A DNA stretch of 64,000 bases from Dichomitus squalens LYAD-421 SS1 (lineage: Eukaryota > Basidiomycota > Agaricomycetes > Polyporales > Polyporaceae), in the NCBI RefSeq assembly GCF_000275845.1, contig NW_006766899.1, positions 497,263-561,262 on the forward strand, given 5' to 3'. Within the stretch, counting starts at the first letter, position 1. Each line of letters starts with the position of its first letter. The notes beneath the pieces are model-generated. The model was not told the DNA's origin and searched no databases. It saw only the letters and a list, made by a program, of their open reading frames with translations. A program made the translations under genes and the position numbers. Positions 2,352 to 43,437 of the stretch are shown piece after piece.

Positions 2352-5300
2352 ATGCTGTCTGATTGGGAATCCAGTCTCACCGAGTTTTCCTCGGAGTCTG
2401 ACGACGAGTATGTCCCCCGCGCCGCGCCTAAAAAGAAGCCCAAACAGACAGCTGAATACAAAGTGAGTGGCAATCCGTTTTACAGCCCTTTACGGCATCA
2501 ACCCACGGTTTTAACTAACCATTTTGACCACGCAGGTTACGAAGTCCTTGCAACCTTACCGTACAACGACCTATACTGCACAAAGTTTGTACGGTATGTA
2601 CTACTAGCTTGGAGTGGCACAAGTATGTTGTGGGTTTGACGTCTTATCTCTCACTAGATCAGATAATCGACAATACCATCGACCTTGATCCAGAGTACCA
2701 GCGAGGTACATATATGCGCACTTTTCATGCCATCTATGGCTTAATTGATTCTGTCTACCTGCAGATATCGTGTGGGGGGAAGCTAAGCAGTCGGGTCTGA
2801 TTGATTCAATCCTGAGAAATTTCTACATACCTCCTGTTATTTTCGGTGAGTATACAGTCCGTTTGCGGATTTCGAAAGCACCAAACCCAGCTTCGTTGCA
2901 GCCGTAACTCACAACGAGGACGGCACACAACGCCGGACCTGTATCGACGGAAAGCAAAGGCTGACCTCTATCCAACGGTAAGCTTTCCTTACCTTTTGGC
3001 GCCCACGTGTGGCCGCGAGCTTTCCTCTATCGTCCTTGGCGTCACATATGCTCGGGCGACAGAGGCAAGTGAGCGAGCTTGATATGTATGCAATTTGCTC
3101 GACGACCTCGCGTACCTGCGGGTTTAGAGTGCGGAGGTGCTCACAGCTCTTGCCAGTAGCTTCCCACAAAGACAAGGGGAGGTTCATAATACGTGCTCAC
3201 CGACACATCACGGCGGTGTCGAACAAACCGAGGCATCCTAGGGACGCGTTCAACTGGGGCCGTTTCGCGCTTCAATCCCATCTGCTTTCAGCCACTGTAT
3301 CCCCGACATTTTCCGCATCATGCCGCCATTGGAGACCTTCACTACGCCTACCACCCACCTCAGGAAAGTATCCTTGCTGCAGGATCAGAGAGCTTGTCCA
3401 GCGGTCCGGGTCGTTGCACCAGGTGTTAACATCCTTGGTGGTCACGTCCAAGTTTCAGCTGATGCAACACTTGGAGTGATACGGCTACCAAGAGGCGGAA
3501 ACATCTTTGGCGTGGGTACTCAGCATGAGCATTCTATACCGATATCATGCTGCGTATCGTGCCCAATACTTGCCTGTTGCTTGGAAATCATCTCCAGCGC
3601 ACTCGCCAATGCAGGGAGCCAGACAGCAGGAGACACAGATGCACCCTTCTTCTTTCTTCAAGAGTGAATGCGCACATCTGTAACTCAGGACTATTCACGA
3701 TTATGATTCAATGGCAGGTTCATGGATGGGAAGGTAGGTGACCACAATTGGATAACGTGGTCAAGTGATTCTTTCTGAAGGCGTTGCTGCACATGGCATA
3801 GGTTGCTCGTGAGTGTTGGTCGTCATGATTACTGTACCATTGCTTAACCATCGGCTGCAGATAAGGACATGTGAGTGCAATTGCGCGCGGCAGCCTGCCG
3901 ACTGTGCCTCCGACTAATTGGCGTGCAGCGACAACGGCAAGAAATACTGGTACAAGAAGATCGATAATGAATCACGCGCCCTGATCTCGAAGCCTTTACG
4001 CCAAACGTTTGCGAACAAGCAAATTACTTGCATTGAATATGACGGCCTTACCGAAGATCAAGAGCGGGAGATATTCCAGGTTAGGCTGACTACTAGGGTG
4101 CCTGAGATTGTTTTATTCATTGTCATTTCAGCGAGTGCAACTTGGGGTGGCCTTGACCACAGCCGGTAAGCTGGCACTCCGCATTCACCATAGATTGCTT
4201 CTTACCCTACTTTCAGAGCGCTTGCAGGCAATCCCCGGACCACGGCCGGCTCTGATTCGGGAAGTACAGTCCATCGTGCTAGGCGAGGACGGATTTGGCT
4301 CAGACCTGGACTGGGGTCATGATCGCGGCCGGGATTTCCAGTGTCTCGCAACGATCATATGCCTCATCGAGAGCCACCCAAACATCACGTTTCCCGGATC
4401 CCCCAAGCTCGAGAAATGGTTGTCGAACGCGAAACTTGTGGACGACAAGACGCGCAAAGATGTGTTCGAGACGTTTCAGATCTTCATCACGCTCGTAAAG
4501 GACAAGAAATACAACGCCGCGTTCAAGAAACCATCTCGCGTCTCTCCCGTGGAGTTCACGATGACGGGCGTCCTCATCTACCTCTACAAGAAGACGTATT
4601 CGCTCATGCAGCTGTCGAGCGCCATCTGGCAGATGCGCGCGGACGTTCGCAAGCAGTTCGCGGACGTCCGCGCGAATGCGAAGGTCACGAAGGCCATGTT
4701 CCAATTCCTGGACAAGGGCGTTAAGGGCGTCGAGCTCGCGAGCGACGGAAAAGGCGATATTCCTGCTGCAACCGCGATCAAGACGATGGACTCCCCTGCT
4801 CGAGCTGCAGAGACTGACGAAGATACGCCTGAGCCAGCACCCAAGAAGAAGAAGCAGAAGAGGCGCAGAGTTCAGGAGCCACCCTCTAGCGATGACTCAG
4901 ATTACGAGGCCGTCCGTCCAAAGAGGAGAGCTTCGATGCCAGAGCCTCAGGCGTCTACATCTAGCAGTGTAGTCCCGAAGGCGGCCGCTTCGAGGCCCAC
5001 CGCCGCAAGGAAAGTTTCTGCGCCCGTCGCCACGAAGATCAAAGCCGCCTCGAAAGCAGCGCCAAAGGCCTCCACCAGGTCTTCCACAGTGTCACAGCCC
5101 CGAGATGGACCTTCGTCTTCTCAGAGTTCTATTCCTCTAGGAGGATTCGCGACGGCAATGAACAACTTCACCTCCAGGAAAACGAGGACAGCAATGTCTG
5201 CTGCTGCGGACTCTCTCCTTGCGCAAGCGCCTGTTGCAGAAATCGGAACCACTTCTGCAGTAGGGTCTGGTAAGCAAGCTGTAGAGCCACCTATGAGCGC

Positions 5301-6149
5301 TGTGAAGATGGAAATTGATCCTCCACGGCTGAGAACCCCGGATGCTAATGATGATAATGCCATGTCAGTCGGTCTGTCACCGCTTCCTTCAGGGCGTTCA
5401 GCTCACTGGCATTGTGGCGTTAGGGCTATTGACGACGCGTCGAATACGGCACAGGTGCGCCAAAGCTGTGGTCACTTACCATACAGTGTAGCGCTCCTCA
5501 CACCAACTAACAGATGGATTCTACTCCCACACCCCGAAGCCTGCCGCGATCTGGCAAGCGACAGTTGACAGCCAATGTCGCTATCTCGTGGATGGAACCA
5601 CATCCCGACTTAGGAGACATTGATACAGGCGCGATCGAGCAGATGTTGAAGCTCAACATGAAGAGTGCTCAAGCGACGCCTATTGGCTCGCCTGTAGTGC
5701 CTGCGCCTCCGCCGCCTCCCTCAATATCTGCACCGCCCATGCTGGGAGCGTTAGGCCAGTCCGCCAGCACCATCCTACCACGTCGGACAGCCGTGGACAC
5801 GTCTTCAAGTGCTCAGGCCACACACATGCCTCCTCCCCAGTCTCCGATCCTTCCCCGGACCGACCATGTCCGTGGGCGCTCCTCAGACCGCTCGAGGGAT
5901 GGAGACCGGGACAGGAGAGAAAGGAGCCGCGATCGCGATCGCGAACGGAGCAGAGACAGAGGCCAGCATGATTTCCGCGGATCTACGCGGACTGCTGCCG
6001 ACAGGAACCGGAGTCGCGACAGAGATCATGATCGATGGAGGGAACCGCCCACGAGAGAGTGGCAGCTGTCTGAAGCGGAGCGGAGGCGTCGAGATAGGAG
6101 CAGGGAGAGAGACCGCTATCGTTATACGGGACGGCAAAGAGGCTATTAG
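2352..6149 (+). CDS. DUF262 (GmrSD N-terminal / ParB-like) domain protein, paralog A
   Basis: The biochemical role in fungi is unknown. DUF262 is the N-terminal domain of bacterial GmrSD-type restriction enzymes and has a ParB/sulfiredoxin-like fold. Twelve exons close to 821 residues: 2352..2462, 2536..2593, 2658..2705, 2765..2845, 2902..2977, 3718..3733, 3802..3808, 3861..3870, 3929..4079, 4132..4165, 4217..5454 and 5514..6149. Hallmarks are PEYQR...W (residues 68-76), the GLIDSILRNFYIPPVIF helix and DGKQRLTSI (115-123, the DGQQR-type motif). NKQITC and EREIFQRVQLG follow. No HNH (DUF1524) nuclease part is present. The C-terminal half is low-complexity: acidic/basic, Ser/Pro-rich, ending in an Arg/Asp/Ser-rich tail from about residue 690. 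The 16, 7 and 10 nt microexons are supported by the same trio in paralog B (41195..43437). Intron 2978..3717 is unusually long. Confidence 0.88.
2978..3717 (+). other. Oversized 740-nt intron, probable insertion
   Basis: This intron of DUF262 gene A runs from GTAAGC to GGCAG and is about ten times longer than its neighbours. The equivalent intron of paralog B (41782..41845) is 64 nt, so roughly 680 bases look inserted. It contains unrecognised ORF fragments on both strands, such as a minus-strand stretch at 2909..3187. I see no terminal inverted repeats or recognisable transposase. Confidence 0.6.
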
Positions 6150-6913
6150 CGAGGGTACAGGTTGGTAGTATGTTGCATCGGTCCGCTATGCTTGTCATGT
6201 CTCGAGATTGACGCCTCAACCTGCGCTCTCCCATCAGGAAGGGCGGACGTGTTCTACGCCATACCGTAGTATCCAGGACAGCCAACTATATCGCCTCGTC
6301 ATGATCCATCAGTTATGCTTATTGTATCCCCTTGTGTGGTTTCAGAGCTACTGTGCATCAGTTCTATACCCGCGCGTATCTACCACTGGTACGCTGCACT
6401 CCACAGCCAGAACATCTTCACTTAGCAGAATCTGAGCTGTTGAGTATCTCGCCTCAATCCCGCGAATGCCTCGGCAGCTGCCAAGTCATATGACACGTCG
6501 GCCTGATCCTTGGTCCGATTGCATGAAGTACTTATAGAACTGACCTTTCCATAGACATCACTCAGAACAGCAAGCGTGAGTCTCAACCGGCGCTTAGAAT
6601 GGGTATCGAATTGTATCACGCACGTTCGACCTACCTTGCGTACCTGGCATTGCAACAGCAGCAGTGCGCGCGCAGAAATCAGCTCAGCACCGATTCGCAT
6701 CGCAATCACGGCTCTCGGGCCCCTTCTCGCGGTGAACGAGTATTCTTTGCCTTTCCGGACAGTGATGCACTATAGATCTGTTCGACAGGACGGCCGGACG
6801 CCCTCACGTCGTCGCAGCACCTCACGGGCATCCCCACTTCTCCACCGGTCATCCACATTGTCTCGTCCCACACACTCGAGTTTGGTTAAGTCAACACGCC
6901 TCCCGCGTTAGCC
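6150..6913. other. Intergenic, no gene recognised
   Basis: These 764 bases lie between DUF262 gene A and the DUF6535 gene. Short open frames on both strands (for example 6576..6911 +) have no recognisable family. The region probably holds the 3' end of the first gene and the promoter of the second. Confidence 0.5.
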
Positions 6914-9304
6914 ATGCAACCAAGGTCACGAAGGGAAAGTCTAAAGTCTCAGCGGACGCGCTCGGCGCGTTGGACACGGTCTCAACCAGAAAGAAGGCAG
7001 TCACACGAGTTAGAGGTGAGTCTTGTTCAATGGCAGTCGTCGAGAGACATGTCGTTGACGCATTGTTGGATCTCAGCCACTACCGAAGCTTGGGGACGTG
7101 GTCGTGGACATAGAGGTTTGGGCCCTTGTCATATTGTTTTGAAGGTCTCTTATGTTTTCCCGCATACAGGAAGTTGAGGCGGAGTCACCCAGTGCCAATG
7201 CTCTCGCTACTCGTGGCGCTTTGGCTGCAGATGCATGGATGAAATGTGCCGCCGCTTTGAAGGAGTATGATGAAGACAAGATTCAAGGATGGAAAGAAGA
7301 GATAGACACCCACCTCGTTTTCGTGAGTCAGCGCTTGGTTCTTTTCGTTGCTCAATGTGATAAGGAATGCTTGTGGGAGGGCAGGCGGGTTTGTTCTCTG
7401 CTATCTTGACGGCCTTCAACATCGAGGCATACAAACTGCTCGGGGGGAATAATCCCAACTCAAACTCGTCAGCGGACACAACGAACCAGCTTCTGGCGCT
7501 TCTCGTTCAACAGGCGGCTCCCACAAATTCGAACATCACTACATTTGCTACCAACGCTTTCAACGCTGCTCACCAAGACATCAGTTCCACTCCGCCTCGA
7601 ACGGCGAAATCTTCATTGGCCATCAACGCGCTCTGGTTCTCTAGCCTCATCTGCAGTCTCGCGGCAGCATCGATCAGCCTCTTGGTCAAACAGTGGATGA
7701 ACGAGTACAAATATGGCATGGCGAGTGCTTCACCCGAAGTCGCTCGTATACGGCAATTTCGATACGATGGGTTGAAGAAGTGGCGTGTCGAGGCCATCAT
7801 GATGCTGATCCCCATCCTCCTTCAGGGCGCCCTCGTTCTCTTTCTCCTTGGGCTCATTCTGTTCCTCGCGCCGCTCGATAACTCTGGCGCTGTCACTAAG
7901 GCTGCGGGAATACTCATCTCGAGTCTGCTCTTCTTCCTCGCTTTGACTACATTGCTACCTACATTCGTCCCCGATTGCTCGTACCAATCTCCGCAGGCAT
8001 GGGGCGTCTTCGTCGTCATTCAAGCACTGAAGAAGCCTATTCGCTTTGCTGTCCGCCGCTTATACTCCATCGCGAAAATTAGGGCCGCCCGACATGCCGA
8101 CGGGACGATAAGCCGACTGCGCGTTCGGATGGCGAGAAACTTCGTCCAACGATTCAAGCGCTTCGCGAACAAGCCCAATACGTACAGTTGGAAGGCACGG
8201 GAACGTTTGTTGGTGGAGGAGCAAGGCCCACTCCTGGATCAGCATTGCCTCGTCGGCGCAGACGTCACGTTCTTGGACGACTCTTTCCTGCGTAACGTCA
8301 TCCAGCCTTGTCTCAACGACATGGCCCCTATTCCTGCCGTTGAGTGCTACTATACCATCATGGCGCACCGCGCAGACCGTATGGAAAACGGGATCTCGTA
8401 TTTCGAGACCCAAAGCGCAGGATCGAAGGCCGAATCGCTCGCGATACTCGCGGATATCACGCTTGATACACTTCGGAAGACCCGGACGGAACCCGGTGTC
8501 TCGATCGAACATGCCAGGCGCATTATGGATACACTGGAGCCTCTGCTCGTCCGCACGTTGCCTCATATATACCCCCACTTCTGCGAAATTATGTTTGGGT
8601 TGCTAGGAGACCAGGACACGACTGTGCGCAAGCAGGCCTTTGCGATTCTCTACCAACATCTGTCGAGGAACCCAGAGCTGGCGGAGCAGTGCTCTGCTAT
8701 TGGTTGTAACGGTATGTCTCCCTGCCCTAGGTCATAGGCCAATCATGAGCTGAGATAGCACGTACTATCAATAGATCTCAGTGCTCTCGTAGCCTTCGTG
8801 AGCAACGCACGCACAGACGGGAATTACAAGCAATTCCTCGACGGGTGCGACCTCGTTATATGCCTCGCCACCCTCCGCACTGCGCTCGCCTCGCCGGAGA
8901 CTCAGAGCGCGGTCCCGGGGATACGCGACCACCTGCGCGACACCCTCTCTCACCTCCAGACGTTCTTCGAGACCCCGCTCTGGAAGAACGAACCCCGCCT
9001 GCTCTACCCGATCTCGCGCATCCCCCCACATCTCGTAGCGCTGGAGCGGCGCTACCCAGGCATACTCGAGGACGAGCTCGTCGGCGTGCTCGAGCAGGTC
9101 ACCCAGCATGCGAAGGGGAGGCTGAACCATGATGGAAATTGGGAGGATAAGATTATCATCTTGGAGACGACCCTCCAGGACCTGCAGATGGTGAGACTGG
9201 GTGGGTCGCAAGCATCGATCATGACGCTGAATGAGGACGGGATACCGCACGTTCGGCGACCGTCGCTTATGCGCAACGCGATCAGCCCTACTTTGGACGT
9301 TTAG
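6914..9304 (+). CDS. DUF6535 domain membrane protein
   Basis: This belongs to a membrane-protein family common in agaricomycetes whose function is unknown. Five exons give 716 residues: 6914..7015, 7077..7115, 7170..7322, 7385..8711 and 8775..9304. The N-terminus is Arg/Ser-rich. The conserved domain starts near AWMKCAAALKEYDEDKIQGW and continues into AGLFSAILTAFNIEAYKLL, the first membrane segment. A second hydrophobic stretch (ALWFSSLICSLAAASISLL) precedes VKQWMNEY. A close pair of membrane helices follows (LIPILLQGALVLFLLGLILF and ISSLLFFLALTTLLPTF). The remaining ~430 residues are soluble and probably helical. The first two exons are supported only by frame closure, so the start is less certain than the body. 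Confidence 0.82.
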
Positions 9305-9957
9305 GGGATCAGCTGGCCTGGGGTTCTAACGCATGGGTGACGCTCATGAACTTGTACTTGGACAGACTCACAGGCTGACTGGGAATAGTTACCAATCATT
9401 GATGTAGATCGCCATATAATTCTGCTAGTTGGTATCGCATATGTACGTTCTTCTCAGTGGCGTCGTAGTTCCAGGGAGGTTGCGATTGGGCTTAACTGGT
9501 TGCGTAGGCACACAGGAGCGCGCTCACTTCTACGGTTCCAACTCTGGTATGCAGGCATGTAATCGCGGAGTCTGGTGAACGACACTCAGTATGATATTCT
9601 TCATCACGCTGTTCGGCGCGCACGGAATAAGTCTCCTCAAGGGCTCTGCATGGTGCATAACCTCGAGGCTAGCTCCTCGCCACCTAGCACCAATGCCTGA
9701 AGATGCTTCATCTATGACATACAATTGACGCGCAGTTACACCACTACGTGAATGCCTGCGGGTGGAGATGGTGAGAGGCATCACTCGACTACGTGATTAC
9801 GTGCTACGCAGCCTGTTACGCTTCGTCGCAAGGGGGAATGCGTAGTTCATTGTCAAGTAACTTCTAGTATAATCGTAATGTACGTGACCGGGTCATCATG
9901 CTCGGATTCCAACGTACCATATCACCCAATATCTACTTCATGCGATCATAACGCGTT
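9305..9957. other. Convergent intergenic region
   Basis: These 650 bases lie between the 3' ends of the DUF6535 gene (+) and the MFS gene (-). I see no coding sequence; both terminators and poly(A) sites are expected here. Confidence 0.5.
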
Positions 9958-11802
9958 TTACAGGTAATACCTGAAGCTCGGATGCCTGTGCGGGCCGATT
10001 CGCGGTCAGTACGGGATGGATTTCCAGCGATTGGGACGAGACACGCACCTATCACCCAGGTCGCCCAAGTCCTCTCCTAGTAGGTCATGCTCCTTCGACC
10101 GTGTCACCGTCTCGTTCGCAGAGCGATCGCGGCTCTCGTTGTCCGTCTTGTAGCTCCACCACAGTGCAGTGCCTGCGACGAGCGCGATCGCGTAGCACGC
10201 GATGTTGATCGCGTGTCCTTGGACGTACCGCGGCGCCCACTCCGCGCGGTAGATCTGCCCGGAGACCGTGCCGCCGATGTTCCCGAGGGAGAAAACAATG
10301 CCGAGGGCTGCGGCGCGCTTGTTCGAACTCGCGACGTTGCTGCCGAGCCACGTCCAGCAGACCGAGACGGGGATGAACCTGGAGGTCGCTCGTGGTCAGC
10401 AGAGCACGCGAAGGGGATGCGAAGGAGACGCGTCGACGTACATGAACATGACGAGGAAGAACATGATATAGCGCACGACGAGGCTCTCGACCGTCATGAG
10501 CACGATCAGCGCGACGATGACGACGACGATCGCGGCGACGTAGTGGTAGAACAGCCTGCCGTACCGGTCCGCCGTCCACCCCGCGAGCAGCACGATGATG
10601 AAGCCCAGGCCGTACGGCGGGCACGCCATGAGCGTCGCCTGCGTGCCCTTGTAGCCCAGGCCGGTCACGACCGACGGCAGCGACAGGATGACGCTGTACA
10701 CGGGGATGTAGATCGTGATGTACACGAGCCCCCATAGCCAGGTGCGCCAGTCGGTGAACGCGGAGCGGATCTGCCTGCCGCTGAAGTGCTCCCCGGCCTT
10801 CTGGGCGCGGTCCGCCTCGTTCGCGAGCAGGACGACGCGCTTCTCCTCTTCGGTCAGGAAGTGCGCGGTCTCAGGGTATGCGGACATGACGAAGAACGCG
10901 ATGAGACCGAAGCCGCCTGTGATGCATCCTTCGACGATGAAGATCCACCTGGGGCGCGGTCGTCAGTGGCGACGCGGTTCGTCAAGTCGCAGGGTACGTA
11001 CTTCCACCCGGCGATACCATAAGTGCCATCAAGAGCGTGAATCGCGGTCGCGAGAAGACCTCCGAACGCTCCGGTGAGGGATACGCTCGAGTACAGGATG
11101 GCGAAACGTCTTCCGAGGACGGTTCGCGGGTACCAGCAGCTGACTGTTTAGTGAGATTTCGGTTAGAGGGCACACAGACGCAGACGATCTCATCAGTGAC
11201 TACTTACGCCAGTAAACGATACCAGGCAGGAAACCTGCCTCGGCCATGCCCAGGAAGAATCTGATGGCCAGGAGACCTGCCGCATTCCTCACCGTGGCGA
11301 ACAGAGCACAGACCAAACCCCAAAGCACCTTCCAAGTCTCGTTCGCATCGGATAATTGCCACGCAAAGACAGACACACTTACAGTCAGAGTAGGGATGTA
11401 CCATGTGGGGCTAATTTTCCGCAGAACGATGTTCGAAGGTGTCTCGAAGACGACATAGCCGATGAAGAAAATGGAAAGCGCCCAGTTGTACTGACTACTC
11501 GTGAGCTTGAGCGAGGTCGCCAAGCCAAGCACTTTGGCATTTCCAATGTTGGCTCTGCAAGAGCAACGGACATTTGAACATGCGAAGATAGGCATACGCG
11601 GATATATCGGAACGCACCTGTCGATGTAGGCAGCCAGGTATAGGAGCACCGCGAGAGGCATGATCGCCAAATCTACCTTCCTCCAAGTCCTCCTGACCAG
11701 TTCGGGATCGTAATGATGGAGGTCTACCCGTGCTTCTTCGAGTGCGGTCGACTTCACCGAAGACGGATAGCTTGCGGCTGTTAGTTCCGCCTTGACGGAC
11801 AT
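9958..11802 (-). CDS. MFS transporter, anion:cation symporter (Dal5/Tna1-like) family
   Basis: This is a predicted plasma-membrane permease with 12 transmembrane helices. The family imports organic anions such as allantoate, nicotinate, pantothenate or biotin precursors; the substrate cannot be read from the sequence. Six exons give 512 residues: 11618..11802, 11208..11554, 11002..11143, 10442..10948, 10049..10378 and 9958..9985. The family pattern is clear. RRTWRKVDLAIMPL...YLAAYIDRANIGNAK covers TM1, and NWALSIFFIGYVVFETPSNI covers TM2. RFFLGMAEAGFLPGIVYW is the TM4 signature, AGWTADRYGRL follows TM8, and IPVSVCWTWLGSNVA...GNIGGTVSGQIY covers the C-terminal half. The short last exon supplies the typical HPSFRYYL ending. 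Confidence 0.92.
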
Positions 11803-28817: not shown

Positions 28818-28825
28818 TATTTATA
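28818..28825 (-). promoter_or_regulatory. TATA box of the sesquiterpene synthase gene
   Basis: On the minus strand this reads TATAAATA, about 90 bases upstream of the start codon at 28728. It is a good match in sequence and spacing to a fungal core promoter. Confidence 0.55.
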
Positions 28826-29357: not shown

Positions 29358-29612
29358 ATGCCAAAGCGAACTCTACGGGATCGTAACTCCATCGAAAATC
29401 TTGGGCACTATGCCCAGAAGAGGTTTAGAGTACCGTCACGGCAACCTGCAAGGAGCCGAGGAACCGGAGACAAGGAGAATGTGCTGCCATTGGCATCGGA
29501 GGTGCGCTTCCCGGCCCAGCTGGGCATCGCGAAGAAATATCGTAGCCACCGCGTCCTTCCAAACGACATTCTTGAGGAGCTCGATCGGGAAGGCATCACT
29601 CCGGACAACTAA
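29358..29612 (+). CDS. Small hypothetical basic protein, 84 aa
   Basis: This single-exon frame of 84 codons is not a family I recognise. It is basic (MPKRTLRDRNSIENL...KRFRVPSR) and contains a GDKENVLP segment and an acidic C-terminal helix (ILEELDREGITPDN). It stands alone between the divergently placed terpene synthase promoter and EF-G. Amino-acid use looks protein-like and the minus-strand complement carries no family. It could be a real small gene or chance. Confidence 0.35.
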   Translation: MPKRTLRDRNSIENLGHYAQKRFRVPSRQPARSRGTGDKENVLPLASEVRFPAQLGIAKKYRSHRVLPNDILEELDREGITPDN

Positions 29613-30065
29613 TGATCCCTACTCCATTATCTTTATTCGTGTTTATAACTATACTATGTGTGCTCCGCTATTGCTACATATTCCCCTCTACTTGTATACC
29701 TGTCCAGTCATGCCATTGACCACTCTCTCCTCTGCGCGACACTCCCACCTACTTATCGGCTTTAATCAACAAGTTAATATGTTTGGCGCCCTGCTTCACG
29801 TGCTTCGTAACGCCGTGACATAGCAGTAGATTGTGCACCGGGCCAATCTTAGTACCGAGTGTATACGTATGTATACGAGGAGCACGGGAAGTCGACGTCT
29901 GATATCTCACGATATCCTTCTGAGGTTCGTCCTGCCACTGAAGACAAACAAAGGCCAATAACAAGATGTCAGACCTAAGGCGCCTAAATTTCCGAGAAAG
30001 TGGCTGCTGGCTGGACGCCGCTTAGCAGACAACTTGCTCATCGTCCGCGACGTTGAGCTGCGAGG
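29613..30065. promoter_or_regulatory. Upstream region of mitochondrial EF-G
   Basis: These 450 bases hold no recognised gene and must contain the MEF1 promoter and leader. The stretch just after 29613 is AT-rich. Confidence 0.4.
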
Positions 30066-33000: not shown

Positions 33001-33085
33001 CAAGACGCACCAGCCGGTGCTGCCGCAGGTGCAGGCTGAGCTTGAGGCCGCGTACAAGAAGAGCATCGGGCAGGTCAAAAAGTAA
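30066..33085 (+). CDS. MEF1: Mitochondrial translation elongation factor G (EF-G1)
   Basis: This GTPase translocates tRNA and mRNA on the mitochondrial ribosome. Six exons give 776 residues: 30066..30374, 30447..30609, 31064..32007, 32060..32203, 32260..32559 and 32615..33085. An Arg/Ala/Ser-rich, acid-poor N-terminus (about residues 1-40) fits a mitochondrial presequence. G1 is AHIDSGKTT (78-86). The switch I region shows [11 protein letters not shown]3 is DTPGHVDFT (interrupted by an intron) and G4 is NKMDRPGA. Domain IV/V markers include [21 protein letters not shown] and RRGTI. Intron 30610..31063 is 454 nt against 52-72 nt for the others. The C-terminus ends in the expected [16 protein letters not shown] region. 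It converges on SEC13. Confidence 0.95.
30610..31063 (+). other. Oversized 454-nt intron inside the G3 motif of EF-G
   Basis: It runs from GTACGC to GGCAG and splits the codon after DTP in DTPGH. All other introns of the gene are 52-72 nt. Both edges are fixed by the conserved protein. The interior carries open frames but no known domain, so an insertion into a short ancestral intron is likely. Confidence 0.55.
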
Positions 33086-33382
33086 TCTGGGTAATTTATG
33101 CTATACGGGACACACTCCCATAGATGGTCATTCGCGCATACCTCCGGTACTCACCACTCACGTTTTACGTAGCATCTCACGTAGTCGTATCACAACATTA
33201 CGATCTTGTATAATCCCCCATTTACTTAGATTGACTGTATGGGTTAAAGGCGCACGCCATAGCAATATAAAAGCCTCAAAAAAGGGTAAAGACTACAACA
33301 ATCCGCGCGTTCGTCATGGTCCGCAATACAAGGCAGTAAGAGGAAACACTCGCTCATGATATTCGTCCAACCGTAATGTAGT
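33086..33382. other. Convergent 3' region of MEF1 and SEC13
   Basis: This AT-rich spacer of 297 bases carries the 3' ends of both genes. Nothing else is recognised. Confidence 0.5.
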
Positions 33383-34684
33383 CTAACTGGTCAGGTCGCT
33401 CACGCATTCCCATGTGCCCTTCAAGTTCTCCTTCCAAAGCGTAACCTTGCCGTCTCCACAGCTGACTGCCAGAATGTTTCCTGCGAGCGACCACGACACG
33501 CGCCACACAACGTCCGGGAACTTGCCCGCGGGCGCTGCAGCCGCCCCAGGCGCCGAGGGCGCGCTCGTCGACGAGGGGTCGAGCGCGGTCTTAACCCACG
33601 GCGCGGTCGGCGAGTCTTTTGTCCAGATCAGCACGGTCTTGTCCTGGGACGCGGTCGCGATGTACGAGCGGGGCAGGCCGATGTTGGGCGCCCAGGCGAC
33701 GTCGCGGACCCAGTCCTGGTGGCCCTCGAGCACCTCCTCCTCGACCCACGCCTGCGTGTCGTCGCGGAAGCCCCAGATCTTGACGAGGTTGTCGCAGCCG
33801 GCGGACGCGAAGCGCTTCACGGACTGCACCGCGGCCGGGGCCTGGCCGGGGACGGTGTTGGACGGCTGCGGGACGAGGAGCGAGCCGGGCTGGACGGCGG
33901 GCGCCCAGGAGACGGCGTTGCAGCCGATGGCGTGGCCCTCGAAGACGTCGGCGCCCCAGGTGCCGTCGTCTGGGGCGTTGGTGAGGATGTGTGGTGTGAC
34001 GTGCAAGGGCAGGGGAGACTTACTTTTAAATGTGAGGACGGAGATGGTGCCGTCCGAGGACGCGCACGCGAGGATGGCACCGAGTTCGTGTGGGGCCCAT
34101 GATACCGAATTGACTGCTGTACGTCAGAGGTGATGTATAGGTATAGAACGAGGGTAGACTCACCTGAAGCTTTGTGCAGTGTGTGCTCCTTGATCTTCGT
34201 CCACCCGCCCGCACCTGGTCCCTGACCCTGCTGTTCCTTCCAGATGATGACCTTCCCATCATATGAACACGACGCGAGGATCTGGCCAAACTTCGGGTGT
34301 GCCCAAGCAACTTGCCACACGGGGCCGGTGTGCCTTGAGGAGGAAGCGTTCGCGCGCGCAGTTCATGTGCTCGTGAAGTACGCGTACTCACCCTTTTAGC
34401 GTATGTCCATTCGCCCGCTGCGTCTCTCCGTCCACTACGTCAAACACCTTCACCGTCCGGTCTGAGGAGCATGTTGCGAGGCGTTTCCCGTAGTAGTCTA
34501 GTTGTGCATCGTGCTATTGGGTGTATTAGGTCGCGTCTCGGAACGGCTCAATGTGCCCGACACATACGATCATGTCCTCATGGGACGTCTCGATAGGGAC
34601 GGGTTCCCCCGTTGTCGTGGACGGCTGTAATGATCACTTTCATTGGCATCAATGTGTAACTTCAATTCACACAAGACTCACCAT
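33383..34684 (-). CDS. SEC13: SEC13 WD-repeat protein (COPII coat / nuclear pore)
   Basis: SEC13 is a six-bladed beta-propeller that forms the COPII outer cage with SEC31 and is also part of the Nup84/107 nuclear pore complex and SEACAT. Six exons give 343 residues: 34682..34684 (only the ATG), 34568..34624, 34392..34513, 34164..34333, 34024..34116 and 33383..33969. The family signature is unmistakable: [99 protein letters not shown], and [19 protein letters not shown] near the end. The protein is somewhat longer than the usual ~300 residues because of Pro/Ala-rich loops between blades. The initiator ATG is followed immediately by an intron. Confidence 0.95.
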
Positions 34685-35177
34685 GGCTGGAGTAGATAGA
34701 AGGAGTAGAGGCGTAAGGTAAGTACTGGTGGCGTGTTACGGTAGCGGCGACGTGGAAGCCTGGTTCAGTGATCTCACTCAACCGAACCGGTTCGCTTTCC
34801 CACGTCTCTGCGAGTCCAGGGAGTTTTGACTGTGCTCATCATCCATTCCATTGCCTTTCAGCCGGAGTACACTCGCCTCTATCATCGCTGGTATGGCCCA
34901 TGTTCGAAATAGCTCCATACGAAACACTTTGGGATCAGAAGGTTGAAGCAGGACCCATGAGGCGGCGGTGAACTGTCGATCAACGACGGCAGGTAACTTT
35001 GGAAGAGTGGTCTCAGCTCATATTCGTATGAGCTCCTCAGGAGCTCCACATATCAGTCGTATGTTGTGAACGAGATGCTGCAAGCCGTCTTCATTGACAT
35101 AGTATGTCTCTAGGTCTTCTGTTGCGTGCTAATGCAGACGGAATCTACATGCATGTTACTGTCTTGGACTCGTCTCC
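34685..35177. other. Upstream region of SEC13
   Basis: No gene is recognised. It holds the SEC13 promoter (minus strand) and the 3' flank of the ABM-like gene. A perfect 17-base palindrome (GAGCTCCTCAGGAGCTC) lies near 35030. Confidence 0.45.
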
Positions 35178-35952
35178 TCAGATCTTCACTGCCAAAACCT
35201 CCGTCGTTATCACCTCGGGTGCCTCGACCAGGAGCTTGTCGACGTTTGCAAACAACGCCTCGGCAACCTTCCCCTTCAGGTGCGCGTCCAGTCCTCCCTG
35301 TGTCGCGAAGAAGTCGACGATACCGAACACGTTCGTCCCCGGAAACTCGATGGCGTACCAAACAGGTGTATCTGGCTCCGCTTCCACGAGGGGGAGTGCG
35401 CCCTATTGCAGCGTCGTCAGGCTGTCCCTCTGGTGGACGCGTTCGACTCAGACTCACCTGCAGGAACTCTCGGACTGCATCGATCTGCTCTGGCTTCGCC
35501 TTGACTAGCACCCTGAGCCCAACCGTCAGCCCCTTCTTAAAATCGCTCTCCACTCCAGCAAGCGGTTTGATCTTGCTCGCGAGCAGGTTGAAGTTGGTGG
35601 AAGGGAGGTCAGGAAGTGCCGCGAGAAGGGTGTCAGCATTGGCGAATAGTGCTTTCGCGACCTCGCCGCTGATGTGCGCCTGCCGTCCGCTCTCCGCCGC
35701 GTAGGTGTCAAAGATGGCGTAGTTCGGCTCGGGAGTGTTGTACTTGAGTGCGAACCACTGCAGGGTCTCCGGTTCCTGGTCGCCGGCGAGCAGGCCGTAG
35801 CCGGTGATGAGGAACTGGCTCAATGCATCCCCTTGGTCAGGCTTCGCCTTCAGGGGTACGAGCTGGCCAATCTTCGCTGTTCAGAGCCCGGCAGCTCAGC
35901 GTTCTTTACACAATACGCGCCTCCTTCGTGCATACTTACGTTGAACGGACAT
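35178..35952 (-). CDS. Tandem ABM-like (dimeric alpha-beta barrel) domain protein
   Basis: This small soluble protein, probably of the antibiotic-biosynthesis-monooxygenase-like superfamily, has unknown substrate. Three exons give 218 residues: 35940..35952 (13 nt), 35458..35876 and 35178..35402. Two copies of the ~100-residue domain lie in one chain. Copy 1 has KIGQLVPLKAKPDQGDALSQFL, then ETLQWFALKYNTPEPNYAIF and SGEVAKALFANADTLLA. Copy 2 has GLRVLVKAKPEQIDAVREFLQ, then DTPVWYAIEFPGTNVFGIVD and KGKVAEALFANVDKLLV. An internal duplication in place of a homodimer is the likely origin. The first exon is short but closes the frame with canonical sites and gives MSVQ. In bacteria similar domains act on aromatic polyketides or heme; no such context is seen here. 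Confidence 0.8.
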
Positions 35953-36992
35953 GTTAGGCTTGGGAGGCGTAGGGTAGGTGTAATGCTTGGTCCCCCGGCC
36001 CCGTATATGTACCCAGCGTCGTTTCCCATCCCATTCCGGGGACATGGAATCTCCTACACCCTCTACCCGAGCAAGCTCTCGCGCTCACCAACGCCACAGC
36101 GGCACAGCGTGAGTGTGCTCATCTGTCATCCACACTTGCGTACTATCCTGACCACCAAGGAATCTGATATATTATAAGATCAGTGGCTATCGTCCGCCCT
36201 ACAGCGCGATGCAACCTCAAGTCGGTTCACCGCAGCCGGCTTTCGTGTCAAGATGCGTCAGCTCCTCCCCCCGTGTCAAGATGCGTCAGCTCGTCCCCCC
36301 GACTGTTCGTCCTGTTCCCCTGCTCTCATCCTTAGTCAGTCCAGGACGCATGCCTCTCCGACCGGATGCTTCTTAGAATGTGCGCAAGTTTCCTCGTGCG
36401 CAGCCCCAAGCCTTTCTAGGCGCTGTCTAGTCCGGAAACGGGGCTCGAATTCTCACTATCGCCGTCCAAGACCACAGGACAAGAGAGACGTTGACACCCT
36501 GAGAAATCTCCGGTAGGCGGCCATCCCACACTTCGGCGCCTTCGTGGGGATTTAGCCACGAAGCCATAGCGTTACGGCACGCGTAATGGTTCCGAGCTGT
36601 CGTCGAGCCGCTTCGACGATCCACAGGGCGTTTATGGATTCGAGTCAATCTCAACGACGATGTATGGAACACATGGCCTTATATCTCTACTAGGTTTTAC
36701 CCGGGGCCTTCTGCACGCAACGCTCCCTATGTACCACCTTGGCGACACACTGGAGTTTGTGAATGCATACGTGGAATATAATGAAGACGCTCCAGCCTGT
36801 GACGCGGCCGGCCAGATGATTTCAGGCGCGCAGACGAAGTCATGGATCTCATTCGGTTCAGCACCGCTTGCATACCGCAACCACGCTTGTAGAGCATAAA
36901 CCGATTGGCAACACACAGTGATGGCGTCTGTTCCACGGGAAGTCCACCCTTGCAATCGTGAGGCATAGGCGAATATCGGTGCATAGTGTGTT
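35953..36992. other. Intergenic, with a 28-bp tandem duplication
   Basis: This 1.04-kb region has no recognised gene. At 36245..36300 a 28-base unit beginning GTGTCAAGATGCGTCAGCTC is repeated twice in tandem with one mismatch. Open frames at 36632..36955 (-) and 36660..36899 (+) overlap each other and match no family I know. Confidence 0.4.
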
Positions 36993-38084
36993 CTAGATAT
37001 TCAGATCAGCTAATCGGTCCGCTAGATCGCCCACTCTATCGGACGTTGTCACATTAGACAACAGGACATGGGTAGTGTCCTTCTGCCTATCCATCTCGTC
37101 TCCCGCTAGGTCTTCCTCGTCATCGTTATCCAGCACGACCCGACCACCCCGCTGCTCAAGTGTAGCAGATATCCTTTGCACGGCATCGCTATCCAGATCG
37201 TCGTTGGCAGCCAAACTGAGGGGTATGAAGTGCAGGAAGGTGGGCGAGCACAGCATCGGACAGAGCGCCATAGGGCTCCTCCTCGATATCATTGTTCTCG
37301 AGGAGCAGTGTCCGTAAACGCGGGACCTTTCCTGCGGCCAGCACCCCAGTCAGCGCCGCCACTGCAGGCTGTGGCAAGACGCAGTCGGAGAGATCCAGAA
37401 ATTCGAGCTCTGGTGTACTCTCGAGCACGTCGATAAGGTACTCCCAGCCGCGTCTTGCAGGAGGCGCCTCGTTCTTCTTTGGCAGATTCGTGGAGCAGGT
37501 GTCGCGGAGGCTGAGGTATCGCAGGTGCAAAGCCCTCATTAAGTCCGCCAGGCGCAGCCGGGAGGAGGGCACCCCCTCCTCCCGGCTGCGCCTGGCGGAC
37601 TTAATGAGGGCTTTGGCAACAGTTGCGCCGGCTTCTGGGCCGAAGCCATTGTCATATATCTTGATGATCTGGAGAGATCGGTGGTGCGTGAGGAGGGGGA
37701 CAAGCGGCTGAACCACACGGGCACCGAAGGCGTTCCCGCTCAAGTTCAACTCGACGAGCTGTGGGCAGCTGCGAAGGCCAGTACAGATGGACGTGAGGGC
37801 TTGTGGGATCTCTTCGATCGTCCTGGTGCCGAAGATGTCTGACAGACCGGCGACCTGCGGCACGTTGTGAGAAGAGAACGACAGGTAAGATGATTGTGCA
37901 TTATACCTTGAGCGACTTCATCTTGGACAGGTTTGTCCCCAAAGCTTCTGCCGCGCCGACACCGAAAGTGTTGTACGCGAGGTATATTTCCTCGATAGCT
38001 TCCAAGTCAACGCCGTCAAAGTGAGGGCTGACATCGGATTGCGTTTCGAGCCTAACGATTGCGAAGATCGAAGATTGTGGTCAT
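36993..38084 (-). pseudogene. RanGAP (Rna1-like) gene, disrupted: two frameshifts and a hairpin-associated internal deletion
   Basis: RanGAP is the LRR protein that activates Ran GTPase on the cytosolic side of the nuclear envelope. Readable parts are exon 1 (37907..38084, MTTIFDLRNR.., then DGVDLEAIEEIYLAYNTFG) and a main exon from 37854 downward. The latter has AGLSDIFGTRTIEEIPQAL, LVELNLSGNAFG, NGFGPEAGATVAKALIKS, later LEFLDLSDCVLPQPAVAAL and LRTLLLENNDIEEE, and an acidic tail to 36993. Three defects are visible. One is a frame change near 38053 (after FDLRNR). One is a frame change in a run of four C at about 37220..37223 (plus-strand G run). The third is loss of about 60 residues, including the ICGRNRLENGS-type loop, exactly at a perfect palindrome (37528..37615). 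A pseudogene or damaged assembly are both possible, since RanGAP is essential in yeasts. Confidence 0.75.
37528..37615. repeat. Perfect 42-bp inverted repeat with a 4-base loop
   Basis: Bases 37528..37569 are the exact reverse complement of 37574..37615, with only four bases (37570..37573) between. The arms are 60-65% GC and would form a very stable hairpin or cruciform. On the minus strand one arm is true RanGAP coding sequence (VAKALIKSARRSREEG) and the other arm is its antisense, read as SSRLRLADLMRAL. Confidence 0.95.
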
Positions 38085-38547
38085 AACGCCGCGGGTTCAA
38101 TGCGAGATGGAGTGTCTGACCAGGGTCGTCTAGACTCTAGAGCTGTTATGTGGCCGCTGGCGAACCGGTGACCCACTGGCGCTGGACAACAAATCGATAA
38201 GCTGTTACTCCGACCATCAACCGCATATGTTGTCGAGGGCGAGCGCTGGCGTGGGCTCCGCCCACGATACTACAGGGCGATATTGAATGCTCGCCGCAAC
38301 TGGGGACGTTCCCTGGGTCAAATATATCTGTTCGTAGTACGCAGCGGGTCCTGAAGAATTGCATACACCAAAATCACTCGGACGTACCTCCATGGCACAT
38401 CTTCAATGTACTTGCAATCGAAACCGCGATGGAAGATCGAGAACATGAGTATATACCCGTACACGTACAACAAAGCCAACGTCCACCCGTTCCCCAGCAC
38501 CACGTCCGAAGTCCGTCAAAGCCATAGGCATCAGTATCGCAGGGCGC
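38085..38547. other. Intergenic between MAD1 and the RanGAP gene
   Basis: These 463 bases should hold the RanGAP promoter and the MAD1 3' flank, both on the minus strand. A minus-strand frame at 38318..38503 is hydrophobic (LALLYVYGYILMFSIF) but has no recognised family or splice partner. Confidence 0.4.
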
Positions 38548-41039
38548 TCACCGCTGGAGCTCCTGTTCTCGCTTGCGCTTGTCATAGCATTCCAGCGTGA
38601 TGCTCGCCAAGAACCCAGGAATGCACTGCTCTTCTTCGATCCAGTACCGCATGAGCTGCGGCAGGTCCTCGGGGCCGCCGCCGCCCTGACCGATAAGCTG
38701 CATCTTCATACCTTCGCCCGCGCCCGTCGGCTGGAATACGAACACAGCGTTGAGGTCGTAGTGCGACGTCACGCGCACCTGGCCGTTCGGACAGAACGTC
38801 AACTTCACACCAAGGATGGACGCGGTCGCTTCCCTGAACTCTGCACTTTTCGCGTTGAAGATCTGCAAGATGCTTTGAGTCAGATCCTGCTCAGCGAAGA
38901 GACATACAGGATATAAAGCGCACCTGCTTCAGGCGAAGCAGCCGTTTCTCCTTCTGCCTGAGCTCCTCTTCTAATTCTTCCTTCTCTTTGTTCACTGCCT
39001 CGTAGCTCTCGCGGGGCACGAGTTCCACGTTGGCATCCTGGCCCGAACCGCGCACACCATTCTCCTCGAGATCCTTCAGCCTCTTCAGCAGTGCCTCGTT
39101 CTCGTTCTTGAGGCGGTCCATCGCGGCCTTACTCAGATCCTCCCACTGCTGCGCAGGGTTGTCGTGAAGGGAGAGAACGCGAACGCCGGGGGGAAGGTGT
39201 CGCCCTGCGCCGATCTCGCCCCGGAGCTCGAAGAGCGTCTGCTCGAGCTCCTCAATCTGCTCGAGTTGTTTCTCGCTTTCCGTTTCAGCCTCCCTTAAGG
39301 CTGTGAGACTCAATTATGAGACATGCCAAACGTTGAACGAGGGGTAGCGTCCGAAACGAACCTTTCTCGGCCTCCTCTTTCAGAGCGCGCTCCTGCTCGA
39401 GCAGCGCCAGGAGCCGCTGCTTTGCTTCAACGTCCTCCGCGATGACGGGGTTCGCGCGCGCGTCTTTCAGCTCCCTCTCCAACACGAATATTGTCTCCTT
39501 GTAGTCCTTGATCAACGCTCCCAGCTCTTGGATGGGCATCGAGGTATCGTTCTCCGATTTGACTTCCCCATTCGCGGCGTCCTCCGCGTTAAAACTCGCC
39601 TGTATACCCGTTAATAAGGGAGTGGCGTATCCTATGTTTCATGAGGACTTACCACCATGGCCTGCAAGAAGCTGACTTCGCGCTCGACAAGTGATGCTTT
39701 GTGCTCGCTTCGTAATGCCCGGTCCTTCAACTCACGAACTTCGGCACGGAGCTCCTTGACTGTCTCTTGTGCTCGAGCCTCGCGCTCCTGCAATCCAGAG
39801 AGTTCTTGCTCACGATGCCGGAGGAGAGCAACGTTCGACCCATGCTCTTCCATCAAGCGCACATGCGCTAATCGTAGGTTCGACAGGCTTTGTGTGACCG
39901 AGACGGGTGTCTTCGACGGGGTGGCAGGTTCGGCAGATGATGAAGCCCTGGGGAATAGGAGGACATTCAGTCGCAATGCCAGAGTCGGACAAAACCATGC
40001 AACGCACCATTCTTGCCTCTCCTTCCTCGCAGCATCCAGCTCAGCTTCCAATTTCACGACCTGCTCGCGCAACTCGTCCGCGCCGCGCAGCCTGCGTTCC
40101 AGGTCGCGCTTCTGCTCCTTCAGCACCTCTACGCTCGTCTGCCTTTCGTGCAGGATGTTGAGTTCCGCGCCCATCTTCGCGTTCGCGCTCTCTAGCTGGC
40201 GCACATACGTGGCCTGGCGGTGAAGCTCCTCCCGAACAACTGCCCAGTCCTCGTTCTGGCCAGCACCGAGAGTTACGCTGTCCTGCGCTGCGTTCAAGTC
40301 GTCGAATTGCGCCTGGAGTTCGTCGAACGCGCGTGCGCGCTCTTCCGCAAGCCGCTGGAACGCCTGCATCTGATTCTCAAGCAGACTGACTTGGCGGGTG
40401 AGTGTCGCTATTTGCGCCTTCTGGCCGGCGATGGTCTGGGACGTGCTTCGGGAGAGGTTTGAATGTTCCTCCTCCAAGTCGACATGTTGCTCTCGAAGAG
40501 TCATGAGCTGGCTGCGAAGGGAGCGAAGCTCGCCATCCGCTTTCCTCTGTGGGTGTGAACACCTTCAACATGACGCCCCAACGTGAACTGGGTGGTGCGT
40601 ACCTTGTCCTCGAGGTGTTCCTCGCGTTCGCGCTCCTTCTCCTCGCGCTCTTCCTTCTCGCGTTCCGCGAGCCATCTCCGATCTCCTTCAAGCCTCTCTA
40701 TTAGCAGGTCCTTTTCCCTCAGTTTGGACTCGAGCTCGAGCTTTGTAGTCTGCGCGGCGGCGAGCTGCCTCTCCAGAGATGCGTGGGTCACATGGGACGA
40801 GAAAGCCTGGGTACGCTGCTGTCGTTTCGAAGTGGAGAGTTGAGGGTCTGGCATGGTCGACAACAAACGTGATCAGCGTCGCCGTCCGGATCCTTGTGTT
40901 CGCCGGGTCACCACAAAGAGCACTCACCGCGCTCGAGTTCCGCAGCGAGCGAGTCGCGCTTGACGGCATTGCTCCGCGGTATGGAAGAGATGAATCGACT
41001 GGCGTTGACGGGCGTGGTGAACCTGTCAGCGTTGTTCAT
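38548..41039 (-). CDS. MAD1: Spindle-assembly-checkpoint protein Mad1
   Basis: Mad1 recruits and converts Mad2 at unattached kinetochores to block anaphase, and resides at nuclear pores in interphase. Seven exons close to 706 residues: 40928..41039, 40603..40847, 40008..40546, 39653..39947, 39362..39599, 38924..39300 and 38548..38862. Nearly the whole length is predicted coiled coil rich in Glu, Arg, Leu and Gln. The C-terminal RWD-like head is diagnostic: IFNAKSAEFREATASILGVK, then LTFCPNGQVRVTSHYD, IGQGGGGPEDLP and IPGFLASITLECYDK. I could not place the Mad2-binding motif with confidence; it should fall before the last coil. The gene is divergent from DUF262 paralog B with only 155 bases between start codons. 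Confidence 0.92.
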
Positions 41040-41194
41040 CGTGGCGGTCGGGGTCGGGGACGAGGAGACGCGTGCGGTCGTCGCGTGAGGTCAGAGGAAA
41101 GGCGCGTCGCCGGCGCCAACGACGCCAACGGCTCTAGATCTTGTACCGCATTGCTCTCCAACCAGCAACGCTCCGTGGCGACTTCTTACTGAAC
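41040..41194. promoter_or_regulatory. Compact divergent promoter, MAD1 / DUF262 gene B
   Basis: Only 155 bases separate the start codons of MAD1 (-) and DUF262 paralog B (+), so the two genes are likely to share regulatory sequence. I see no TATA box. Confidence 0.55.
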
Positions 41195-43437
41195 ATGAGC
41201 GACGTTTCTGACCTGACGGACTTCGACGACGAGGAGGATGTCCCGCTTTCCAGCCAAAAGACCATGAAGTCGAAGGCGAAGGGCAAAAGCAACGCCCAGT
41301 CGGCCTACAGGATTCGCGGGGCGCTGCGGGCCCCTCGGGCGACCACCTATACCTGCCAGGCGTTGTATGGTGCGTATATACGCTGTATCACTCTGCCTGT
41401 ACTTATGGCGCCACTGTTGCAGATCAGATCCATGCGCAAGACATAGACTTGCAGCCAGAATATCAGCGCGGTAGCGTATCCCTTGGTTAGGAGATAAGCC
41501 TCATCCTTACACCTCGTGCTCTAGATGTCGTATGGCCAGAGAGCAAGCAAATAGGTGTGTGGGATCGACCGTCATGCAGATATGCCGTGCTCAGCCTCTT
41601 CTAGGTCTCATAGATTCTATCTTCCGTAATTTCTATGTGCCACCAGTCATATTCGGTATGTGTCAGCATGTCTGCCTTGGCTTTCACTTGAACTTCCTGT
41701 CGCAGTCGTGAATACCATGGATGACGGAGGAGAGCGCCGTGTGTGTGTGGACGGGAAACAGCGCTTGACTTCGATCTATAGGTACGCCACACCCGTATTT
41801 CTTCGCGCGTACAGTCTGTTTACGTGTCGTGTATTCGTCGGTTAGGTTCATTGCAGGCGAAGTAAGCTCGTGCTGGTTTCCTCAGCGAAGGCAATGCTGA
41901 CTTCGAGATTCGTGGCAGATACCTTGTGAGTGGTGTATTGACATACACTTATGCGCAGAGCTGATGCGCAGCTCTGAGGCGAATAGTTAAAGATGCGTGA
42001 GTATAGACTGCATGTGTCACTTGGCGTCTTCGATTCATAAGGTCCCGTGGACAGATTTTCGGGAGAGAAGTTCGTCTTCAAGGATACCGGCAAGATCAAA
42101 GCCCAAGTTTTACCGGACCACTACAAGAAAATTTTCCTCAACAAGCAGATCGTGTGTGACACGAACAGAAAGAACTATAGACAATGGCTAATGCACTCGT
42201 TGCCAGGTCTGTATGGAATATACGGATATAACACCAGACAACGAACGAGAAATTTTCCAGGTAATCATGCGCCACCACTACCCGCAGATCATCGCTAACG
42301 TGTCGTACAGAGAGTGCAGCTGGGTATGGCTCTGACGCCGGCAGGTATGCCCGATCGCTCTCATATTTGTGCGCTGTCATGCTGAAACGACTGTACAGAG
42401 AAACTTCAGGCCATCACTGGACCTCAGGCAGACTTCATTCGGTCCCTTCTCGACAAATATGTTTCGGATGAGCTCGCCAATAACCTTCCATGGGACACTA
42501 GTCGCGCCAACGACTTCAGGGGGCTTTCAATGGCTGTATACACCATGTCGAAGTGGCCTAAAGTGACGACCCTCCCTTCCCTGTCGGTGATTGAGGCGTG
42601 GCTTCAAGAGCCCGATGAGCTCGATGACGATTTCCGCGAGGACCTACATAATACTTATCGCATATTCTGCGCCATGGCCAAGGACCCAGTACTGAACAAG
42701 CCTTTCTGGCTCCCTGGAATCAAGAAGGTGGCGCCGATGGAGGTCATCGCTATCACAGTCCTCATCCACGCGAACAAGCTCAAGATGACTATGGCGCAAC
42801 TCTCCGAAGCCATAGGCCTGATGCGGAAGGAGATCAGAAAAACGGAGAAGGATATCCGGCAGAATACGCGGACAATGAAACTCGTCCTGACTTTCTTGAA
42901 GGAGTTGAAGCCTAGCAGGCTGAAACCTGACCCCAATTCGCCAAAAGCTGTCGATTACCCTTCAGTATCTTCGAAACCGAAGTCGAAGCGAAAGCGACCT
43001 GCTGCCTCTGATGCTGAAGATGGTGAGTAGCTCTATGTATGCCTCGCAGTCTAAGTCTGACTGGCTCTATTGCGTTTGTACTCAACACAGAACCTCGACC
43101 CTCGCCCACTGTGCGCCTTCCCAAGACTTCGTCCCAACCTCCTCCCTCCACCACCAACACTCCAACAATACCTCCTCCATCTTTCTCCCCTTATCCGCCG
43201 CCGCCGACCGCGCCCGCTGTTCTTCGCACGAACGGTTCTGGACATCCGCTTCCATCGCGCCCACACGTCCCAATCCCTCCACAGATATCGGCACAACGGC
43301 AACATACGCTAAGCGAAAATTACACTCCGCGCGCAATGGCCGGTCCAAGTACGCAAGCCTATGATGCGAGTCGAGATCCTCGAAATCCTGCGTATCAGCT
43401 TCCACCGGGCGCGGGGCAGACATGGCCTCGAAGATGA
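41195..43437 (+). CDS. DUF262 (GmrSD N-terminal / ParB-like) domain protein, paralog B
   Basis: This is a paralog of the gene at 2352..6149, with unknown function. Thirteen exons close to 522 residues: 41195..41369, 41423..41470, 41525..41554, 41605..41655, 41706..41781, 41846..41861, 41919..41925, 41987..41996, 42055..42151, 42207..42260, 42311..42344, 42399..43022 and 43091..43437. Motifs are PEYQRDVVW (70-78), GLIDSIFRNFYVPPVIF and DGKQRLTSI (117-125). NKQIVCMEYTDITPDNE and REIFQRVQLGMALTPAEKLQ follow. The body of conserved sequence runs to about residue 405. The tail is Pro/Ser/Thr-rich and shorter than in paralog A, without the Arg/Asp/Ser end. No HNH nuclease domain is present. Exons of 16, 7 and 10 nt occur in the same places as in paralog A. 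Confidence 0.88.

What the first reader, a model, noticed from the sequence alone, without database searches (positions are those of the whole stretch)
2902..42151. Conserved trio of microexons (16, 7, 10 nt) in two DUF262 paralogs
In both genes, right after the DGKQRLTSI motif, the message must pass through exons of exactly 16, 7 and 10 nt. They are 3718..3733, 3802..3808 and 3861..3870 in gene A, and 41846..41861, 41919..41925 and 41987..41996 in gene B. Only these choices restore the conserved protein (RFMDGKVAHKD and RFIAGEIPFKD). The same sizes in two diverged copies show the trio predates their duplication and is kept. Standard predictors would miss or misjoin exons this small.
Basis: seen in the sequence. 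Interest (0 to 1): 0.75.

Follow-up and report, generated by a model that had tools for sequence, protein, structure and literature searches.

The report
Three tiny exons in fungal gene
Two related genes of a wood-decay fungus each carry three consecutive exons of only 16, 7 and 10 bases that encode a conserved piece of the protein; related proteins from other mushrooms suggest that this splitting is old and is often missed in their annotation.

Summary
Genes A (2352-6149) and B (from 41195) carry GT-AG exons of 16, 7 and 10 nt at the stated coordinates, in the same phases. Among open GT-AG paths scored against independent transcript-like relatives, the trio ranks first in A, and the four best paths in B all use it. 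The database holds Dichomitus squalens proteins matching A, B and a third copy, so the window is that species or very near it; both annotated proteins contain the 11 microexon residues. The third copy (C, another contig) has only the 7-nt exon. The tree puts A and B together, with C outside. Relatives show the footprint of the trio: exactly 11 residues (33 nt) are missing from 30 of 138 annotated A+B proteins, 0 of 71 annotated C proteins and 0 of 14 transcript-like A+B proteins. These residues lie in the confidently modelled domain core. Best reading: an old, probably constitutive microexon cluster made by four introns within 33 coding bases; skipping in relatives is mostly annotation error. 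Conserved microexons are known in plants; this is a fungal member of that kind. Nothing here shows regulation, and no RNA of the species was seen.

The parts
2352..6149 (+). Gene A, modelled here with 12 exons (821 aa), GmrSD_N/DUF262 protein
   Evidence: Spliced model open throughout; Pfam PF03235 77.5 bits. P0121 (D. squalens, 801 aa) is 100% identical over the searched domain but lacks 20 residues of the model, which fits one more intron at 5364-5423 (read by eye).
2902..2977 (+). Gene A exon 5, ends in DGKQRLTSIQ plus two bases of the next codon
2978..3717 (+). Gene A intron of 740 nt in front of the trio; the other ten introns of the model are 51-73 nt
   Evidence: one match, to itself, in the genome search; no repeat found
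3718..3733 (+). Gene A microexon, 16 nt
3802..3808 (+). Gene A microexon, 7 nt, followed by donor GTGAGT
3861..3870 (+). Gene A microexon, 10 nt, followed by donor GTGAGT
3929..4079 (+). Gene A exon 9, begins in phase 2
41195..43022 (+). Gene B, first 12 exons as modelled (407 codons, no stop reached); the gene goes on beyond 43022
   Evidence: GmrSD_N matched; P0002 is 100% identical over 295 domain columns
41706..41781 (+). Gene B exon 5, ends in DGKQRLTSIY plus two bases of the next codon
41846..41861 (+). Gene B microexon, 16 nt
41919..41925 (+). Gene B microexon, 7 nt, followed by donor GTGAGT
41987..41996 (+). Gene B microexon, 10 nt, followed by donor GTGAGT
42055..42151 (+). Gene B exon 9, begins in phase 2
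   Evidence: acceptor chosen by B relatives, second best by score

Best explanation
The trio is a real set of coding microexons, most likely constitutive. Four short introns sit within 33 coding bases of the GmrSD_N domain, so the codons for the end of the DGKQR helix and the following loop are cut into pieces of 16, 7 and 10 nt. The peptide appears older than the cuts: the same residue pattern occurs in chytrid, Glomeromycotina, Basidiobolus, Mucorales and Cryptococcus relatives, so introns probably came into continuous code (inferred; the gene structure of those relatives was not seen). The introns round the 7-nt exon are shared by all three copies of this genome and so probably predate them; the outer two phase-2 introns are shared by A and B, either gained on their stem or lost in C (inferred). 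Splicing most likely works by intron definition: each short intron is recognised as a unit and exon size is free; because a 7-nt exon leaves little room for two splicing complexes, the introns are probably removed one after the other (inferred). The donors behind the 7- and 10-nt exons are all GTGAGT, which may make up for the weak exon side (noticed afterwards). The 33-nt skip in annotated relatives is most likely a gene-prediction error that stays in frame because both outer introns are phase 2.
For: Shown: exon coordinates, phases and splice sites; first of 24,409 open paths in A, the four best of 1,793 in B; residues present in the annotated D. squalens proteins. All 27 transcript-like relatives of the first two listings (ORFs of 400-1075 aa on contigs of 1.3-5.4 kb from jgi, lgn or ena) keep the segment, against 69 of 210 other proteins with a break or no readable motif (Fisher 6.6e-5; rows are related, so the p-values are too good). 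Exact 11-residue gap in 30 of 138 annotated A+B proteins and 0 of 71 annotated C proteins (1.4e-6). Where a break could be placed, it lies at or before the 16-nt exon in 41 of 53 A+B proteins and in 0 of 11 C proteins (counted; the five proteins without a readable motif left out), as expected if C lacks the first intron. In 24 of 30 gapped proteins the residue at the join fits two phase-2 junctions, against 11% for random residues. Clades. Residue pattern in 41 of 42 non-Agaricomycete relatives picked by hand. GTGAGT behind the 7- and 10-nt exons in 5 of 5 cases and in 4 of the other 24 introns of the three models (p 0.001).
Against: No RNA of this species was seen. No genomic DNA of other mushrooms was read, so exon sizes elsewhere are inferred from annotated proteins. 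Within A+B alone the contrast of annotated and transcript-like proteins is weak (30 of 138 against 0 of 14, p 0.07). 18 of the 24 fitting join residues are simply the same residue as in the nearest intact relative; 6 of 30 do not fit, one of them (P0200) compared with a damaged relative. In B the acceptor used here is only second by score. A YTRAY branch-site motif within 45 nt of the acceptor is absent from 15 of 29 introns, among them A 2978-3717 and 3734-3801. Deep forks of the tree are only moderately supported (A+B 87, root 66).
Confidence: 0.9

Rival explanations
1. The trio is a regulated in-frame cassette: all three microexons are skipped together in some conditions, giving a protein that lacks 11 residues and probably activity.
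For: Skipping keeps the frame because both outer introns are phase 2; 30 annotated relatives have exactly this form. A switch-like 20-nt microexon is reported in Trichoderma Xlr2 (PMC11121469, abstract and passages).
Against: None of 14 transcript-like A+B proteins has the skip. The lost residues lie in the modelled core (residues 127-137 of P0002, pLDDT blocks 97 and 96). Three exons would have to be skipped together. Caution: each search lists only its 120 best rows, which favours intact proteins.
Confidence: 0.08
2. The match with the conserved peptide is a chance find: the segment is read through another set of exons, and the trio is an artefact of free choice of tiny exons.
For: Tiny exons give many combinations; in the third copy C, rival paths come close (108.1 and 103.7 against 110.7).
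Against: In A the gap to the next path is wide (107.5 against 90.5 among 24,409 open paths); the same sizes and phases recur in B; annotated proteins of the species have the same residues.
Confidence: 0.02

Closest known systems
Conserved coding microexons of land plants (PMC8831610; abstract, section list and passages seen)
   Same: Exons of 1-15 nt, kept in position and phase over long times, coding for protein motifs, and often missing from annotation; two adjacent microexons (5 and 12 nt) in rice are shown there.
   Different: Here a fungus, three in a row (16, 7, 10 nt), in a DUF262 gene; the word 'fungi' has 0 occurrences in that main text.
Trichoderma virens Xlr2 20-nt microexon (PMC11121469; abstract and passages seen)
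   Same: A coding fungal microexon missing from a gene model and conserved in a genus.
   Different: That one is single and regulated by glucose; no regulation is shown here.
Phanerochaete chrysosporium P450 genes (PMC1184071; passages seen)
   Same: A white-rot basidiomycete with exons down to 6 bp and small introns.
   Different: Spread over many P450 families; a conserved trio is not described in the passages seen.
Tuber melanosporum nank genes (one sentence in PMC4986451 citing Iotti et al. 2012; the original was not read)
   Same: Several microexons in a fungal gene family.
   Different: Codon-sized and alternatively spliced, creating diversity; here the sizes are not multiples of three and inclusion appears constitutive.
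GmrSD/BrxU type IV restriction enzymes (PDB 7p9k)
   Same: The protein family: GmrSD_N domain; BrxU is the best fold match (E 1.4e-4).
   Different: The overall match is loose (TM 0.26, rmsd 13.3, 14% identity); no nuclease half was looked for; the role in fungi is unknown.

Membership tests
Conserved coding microexon cluster | Exons of about 30 nt or less with standard splice sites | tested here: met
   16, 7, 10 nt, GT-AG
Conserved coding microexon cluster | Inclusion in mature mRNA | tested here: inconclusive
   27 of 27 transcript-like relatives keep the residues and annotated proteins of the species have them; no RNA of the species seen
Conserved coding microexon cluster | Same size and phase in homologs | tested here: met
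   A and B identical in size and phase; C shares only the 7-nt exon. Other species only by the 33-nt footprint
Switch-like microexon | Inclusion changes with condition or tissue | not testable with these tools
   No expression data; 0 of 14 transcript-like A+B proteins lack the segment
GmrSD_N / DUF262 (PF03235) | Match above the Pfam cut-off | tested here: met
   77.5 bits for A, cut-off 33.2; 3 of 3 own copies match at E 0.1 or better
GmrSD restriction enzyme | DNA cleavage, DUF1524 nuclease half | not tested
   Only PF03235 was reported for the 321-324 aa cores; the rest of the proteins was not scanned

The most novel reading that the evidence does not exclude
The trio is kept as a unit because its joint skipping, or slow and ordered splicing, controls the amount of active DUF262 protein in Agaricomycetes: an in-frame 11-residue switch, or a set of detained introns, right behind the conserved DGKQR motif.
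Probability: 0.08. Interest if true: 0.65.

Novelty: new member of a known kind. Interest (0 to 1): 0.4.

Why it matters
It is a clean test case for how fungi splice very small exons and for how they are lost from annotation: about a fifth of the annotated A+B relatives examined lack the same 11 core residues (30 of 138), so many public sequences of this family are probably wrong at one place. The family could be re-annotated from this rule, and the outer two introns may mark the A+B branch of the family tree.

Tried and rejected
Chance combination of tiny exons: not favoured after path enumeration. Transposon or repeat in the 740-nt intron of A: only itself found in the genome and no repeats; the ORFs there look like noise (by eye). 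Relatives in viral contigs: 17 stretches matched a pattern, none encodes a relative. Twin introns (stwintrons, recalled): not favoured, since the pieces are kept in the protein. The first tree was rooted on P0237 alone; a second used 11 outgroup rows. A first sorting of the proteins used too strict a motif and put intact proteins into a 'no motif' class; it was replaced, whose 'intact' class is lenient and still holds a few damaged ones (for example P0148 and P0099). That class was chosen by similarity, so conservation counts within it are conditional. Of the 101 new rows of the third search, 15 had no readable motif; from the others 41 non-Agaricomycete rows, with P0237, were picked by hand. 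Literature: searches (listings capped); no title on DUF262 microexons was seen there (DUF262 with Agaricomycetes 0 papers; DUF262 with fungal and intron 2 papers, not read). PMC3990503, PMC8022950 and PMC4014442 mention microexons once each, as a read-mapping option.

Full report
What was checked. The start phases of the three microexons are 2, 0 and 1, and the next exon starts in phase 2, in both genes. Models: A has 12 exons from 2352 to 6149 (821 aa); P0121 suggests one more intron at 5364-5423. B was modelled for 12 exons from 41195 to 43022 (407 codons) and goes on. The three introns behind the microexons are 52-68 nt in A and 57-61 nt in B. The intron before the trio is 740 nt in A and 64 nt in B.

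Is it more than chance? GT-AG paths with up to three microexons of at most 45 nt were listed and scored against 13 transcript-like relatives of the C type, which did not include A or B. The trio is first of 24,409 open paths in A (107.5; next 90.5; best with no microexon 47.1). In B the four best of 1,793 open paths use the trio and differ only in the last acceptor. The top one (42095, 79.4) is slightly above the one used here (42055, 77.2); B relatives support 42055. Hopeless partial paths were pruned, so the counts are of paths left after pruning.

Which organism and which proteins. The database proteins P0121, P0002 and P0001, all named Dichomitus squalens, match A, B and C at 100% over 298, 295 and 294 domain columns (microexon columns left out there). 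P0121 differs from A at some tail residues and by 20 residues in length, so the window is that species, perhaps another strain. Both P0121 and P0002 contain the microexon residues. So the trio is already, silently, in public annotation.

A third copy. A Pfam search of the whole genome and two protein searches found one more family member, on contig 42; these searches give lower bounds. It reads DGKQRLTSIQRFFDGQ without an intron, then a 258-nt intron, a 7-nt exon, a 48-nt intron, and an exon that holds the bases of the 10-nt exon fused to the next. Here the lead over rival paths is small (110.7 against 108.1 and 103.7), but the annotated protein P0001 has the same residues.

History. In a tree of 240 rows C lies in a clade of 85 rows, A in one of 104 and B in one of 50. 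A tree of 60 rows with 11 non-Agaricomycete rows as outgroup puts A and B together (support 87) with C outside; B and C are single groups (99), A is single but for one row (P0036); the root support is weak (66). The columns of the microexon segment were left out of both trees. So the two introns round the 7-nt exon are shared by all three own copies, and the two outer ones by A and B only.

Footprints in other species. No genomic DNA of other mushrooms was read, so proteins were used. Two searches returned 846 and 438 proteins, of which 120 each were listed; the 237 different ones were sorted. 27 were called transcript-like because their sources are jgi, lgn or ena alone and they are long continuous ORFs on short contigs; that they are cDNA is an inference. 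Of the other 210, 69 have a break at the segment or no readable motif; of the 27, none. Exactly 11 residues are missing in 28 of 91 annotated A-clade, 2 of 47 B-clade and 0 of 71 C-clade proteins (P0237 lies in none of the three). Where a break could be placed (five proteins without the motif left out), it lies at or before the 16-nt exon in 41 of 53 A+B proteins and in 0 of 11 C proteins, which all break after it. This is what the gene structures predict. At the joins, 24 of 30 hybrid residues fit two phase-2 junctions (random 11%); 6 do not, and 18 of the 24 fits are unchanged residues. Within A+B alone, the gap is in 30 of 138 annotated against 0 of 14 transcript-like proteins (p 0.07). All these p-values treat related rows as independent. 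The gapped species include Polyporales, Russulales, Hymenochaetales and Boletales (names, orders recalled).

Age of the peptide. A third search, from a Glomeromycotina relative, gave 146 proteins, 120 listed. In 41 of 42 non-Agaricomycete rows with a readable motif, picked by hand, the pattern F/Y..(G/N).(I/L/V/F) is present. So the peptide is probably older than these introns, if those relatives lack them, which was not tested.

Function of the segment. A model of P0002 (mean pLDDT 87.3, pTM 0.61) puts the DGKQR motif at the start of a helix (119-129); the microexon residues 127-137 form its end and the next loop and bridge, in blocks with pLDDT 97 and 96. Loss of these 11 residues would probably harm the fold (inferred). 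The best fold match is BrxU, a GmrSD-family type IV restriction enzyme, followed by ParB-like and sulfiredoxin structures, all loose.

Mechanism. Most likely the short introns are each recognised as units, so exon size does not matter; the 7-nt exon makes removal one by one likely (inference from general knowledge of intron definition). Donors behind the 7- and 10-nt exons are GTGAGT in 5 of 5 cases against 4 of the other 24 introns (p 0.001, noticed afterwards). In plants, microexons have more detained introns (PMC8831610, abstract); this predicts partly spliced intermediates here.

Verdict. A real, old, probably constitutive cluster of three microexons, ordinary in mechanism but unusual in density, with a measurable annotation problem in relatives. 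It is a fungal member of the known kind 'conserved coding microexon'. Interest 0.4.

Noticed in passing
window 2978-3717: A 740-nt intron among introns of 51-73 nt in gene A; single copy, no repeats; the intron before the 7-nt exon of C is also long (258 nt).
   Followed up: partly
window 3809-3814, 3871-3876, 41926-41931, 41997-42002; L001 1940-1945: All five donors behind the 7- and 10-nt exons are GTGAGT, while only 4 of the other 24 introns of the three models have it.
   Followed up: partly
window 5364-5423: P0121 lacks 20 residues that the present model of gene A reads here, which fits one more intron of 60 nt (read by eye).
   Followed up: no
window about 1860-2050, minus strand: The DNA next to gene A reads as the start of an SMC2-like protein (GLNGSGKSN motif, name recalled, read by eye).
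   Followed up: no
P0237 (Entrophospora): Holds two near-identical copies of the domain in tandem, perhaps an assembly or annotation fault.
   Followed up: no
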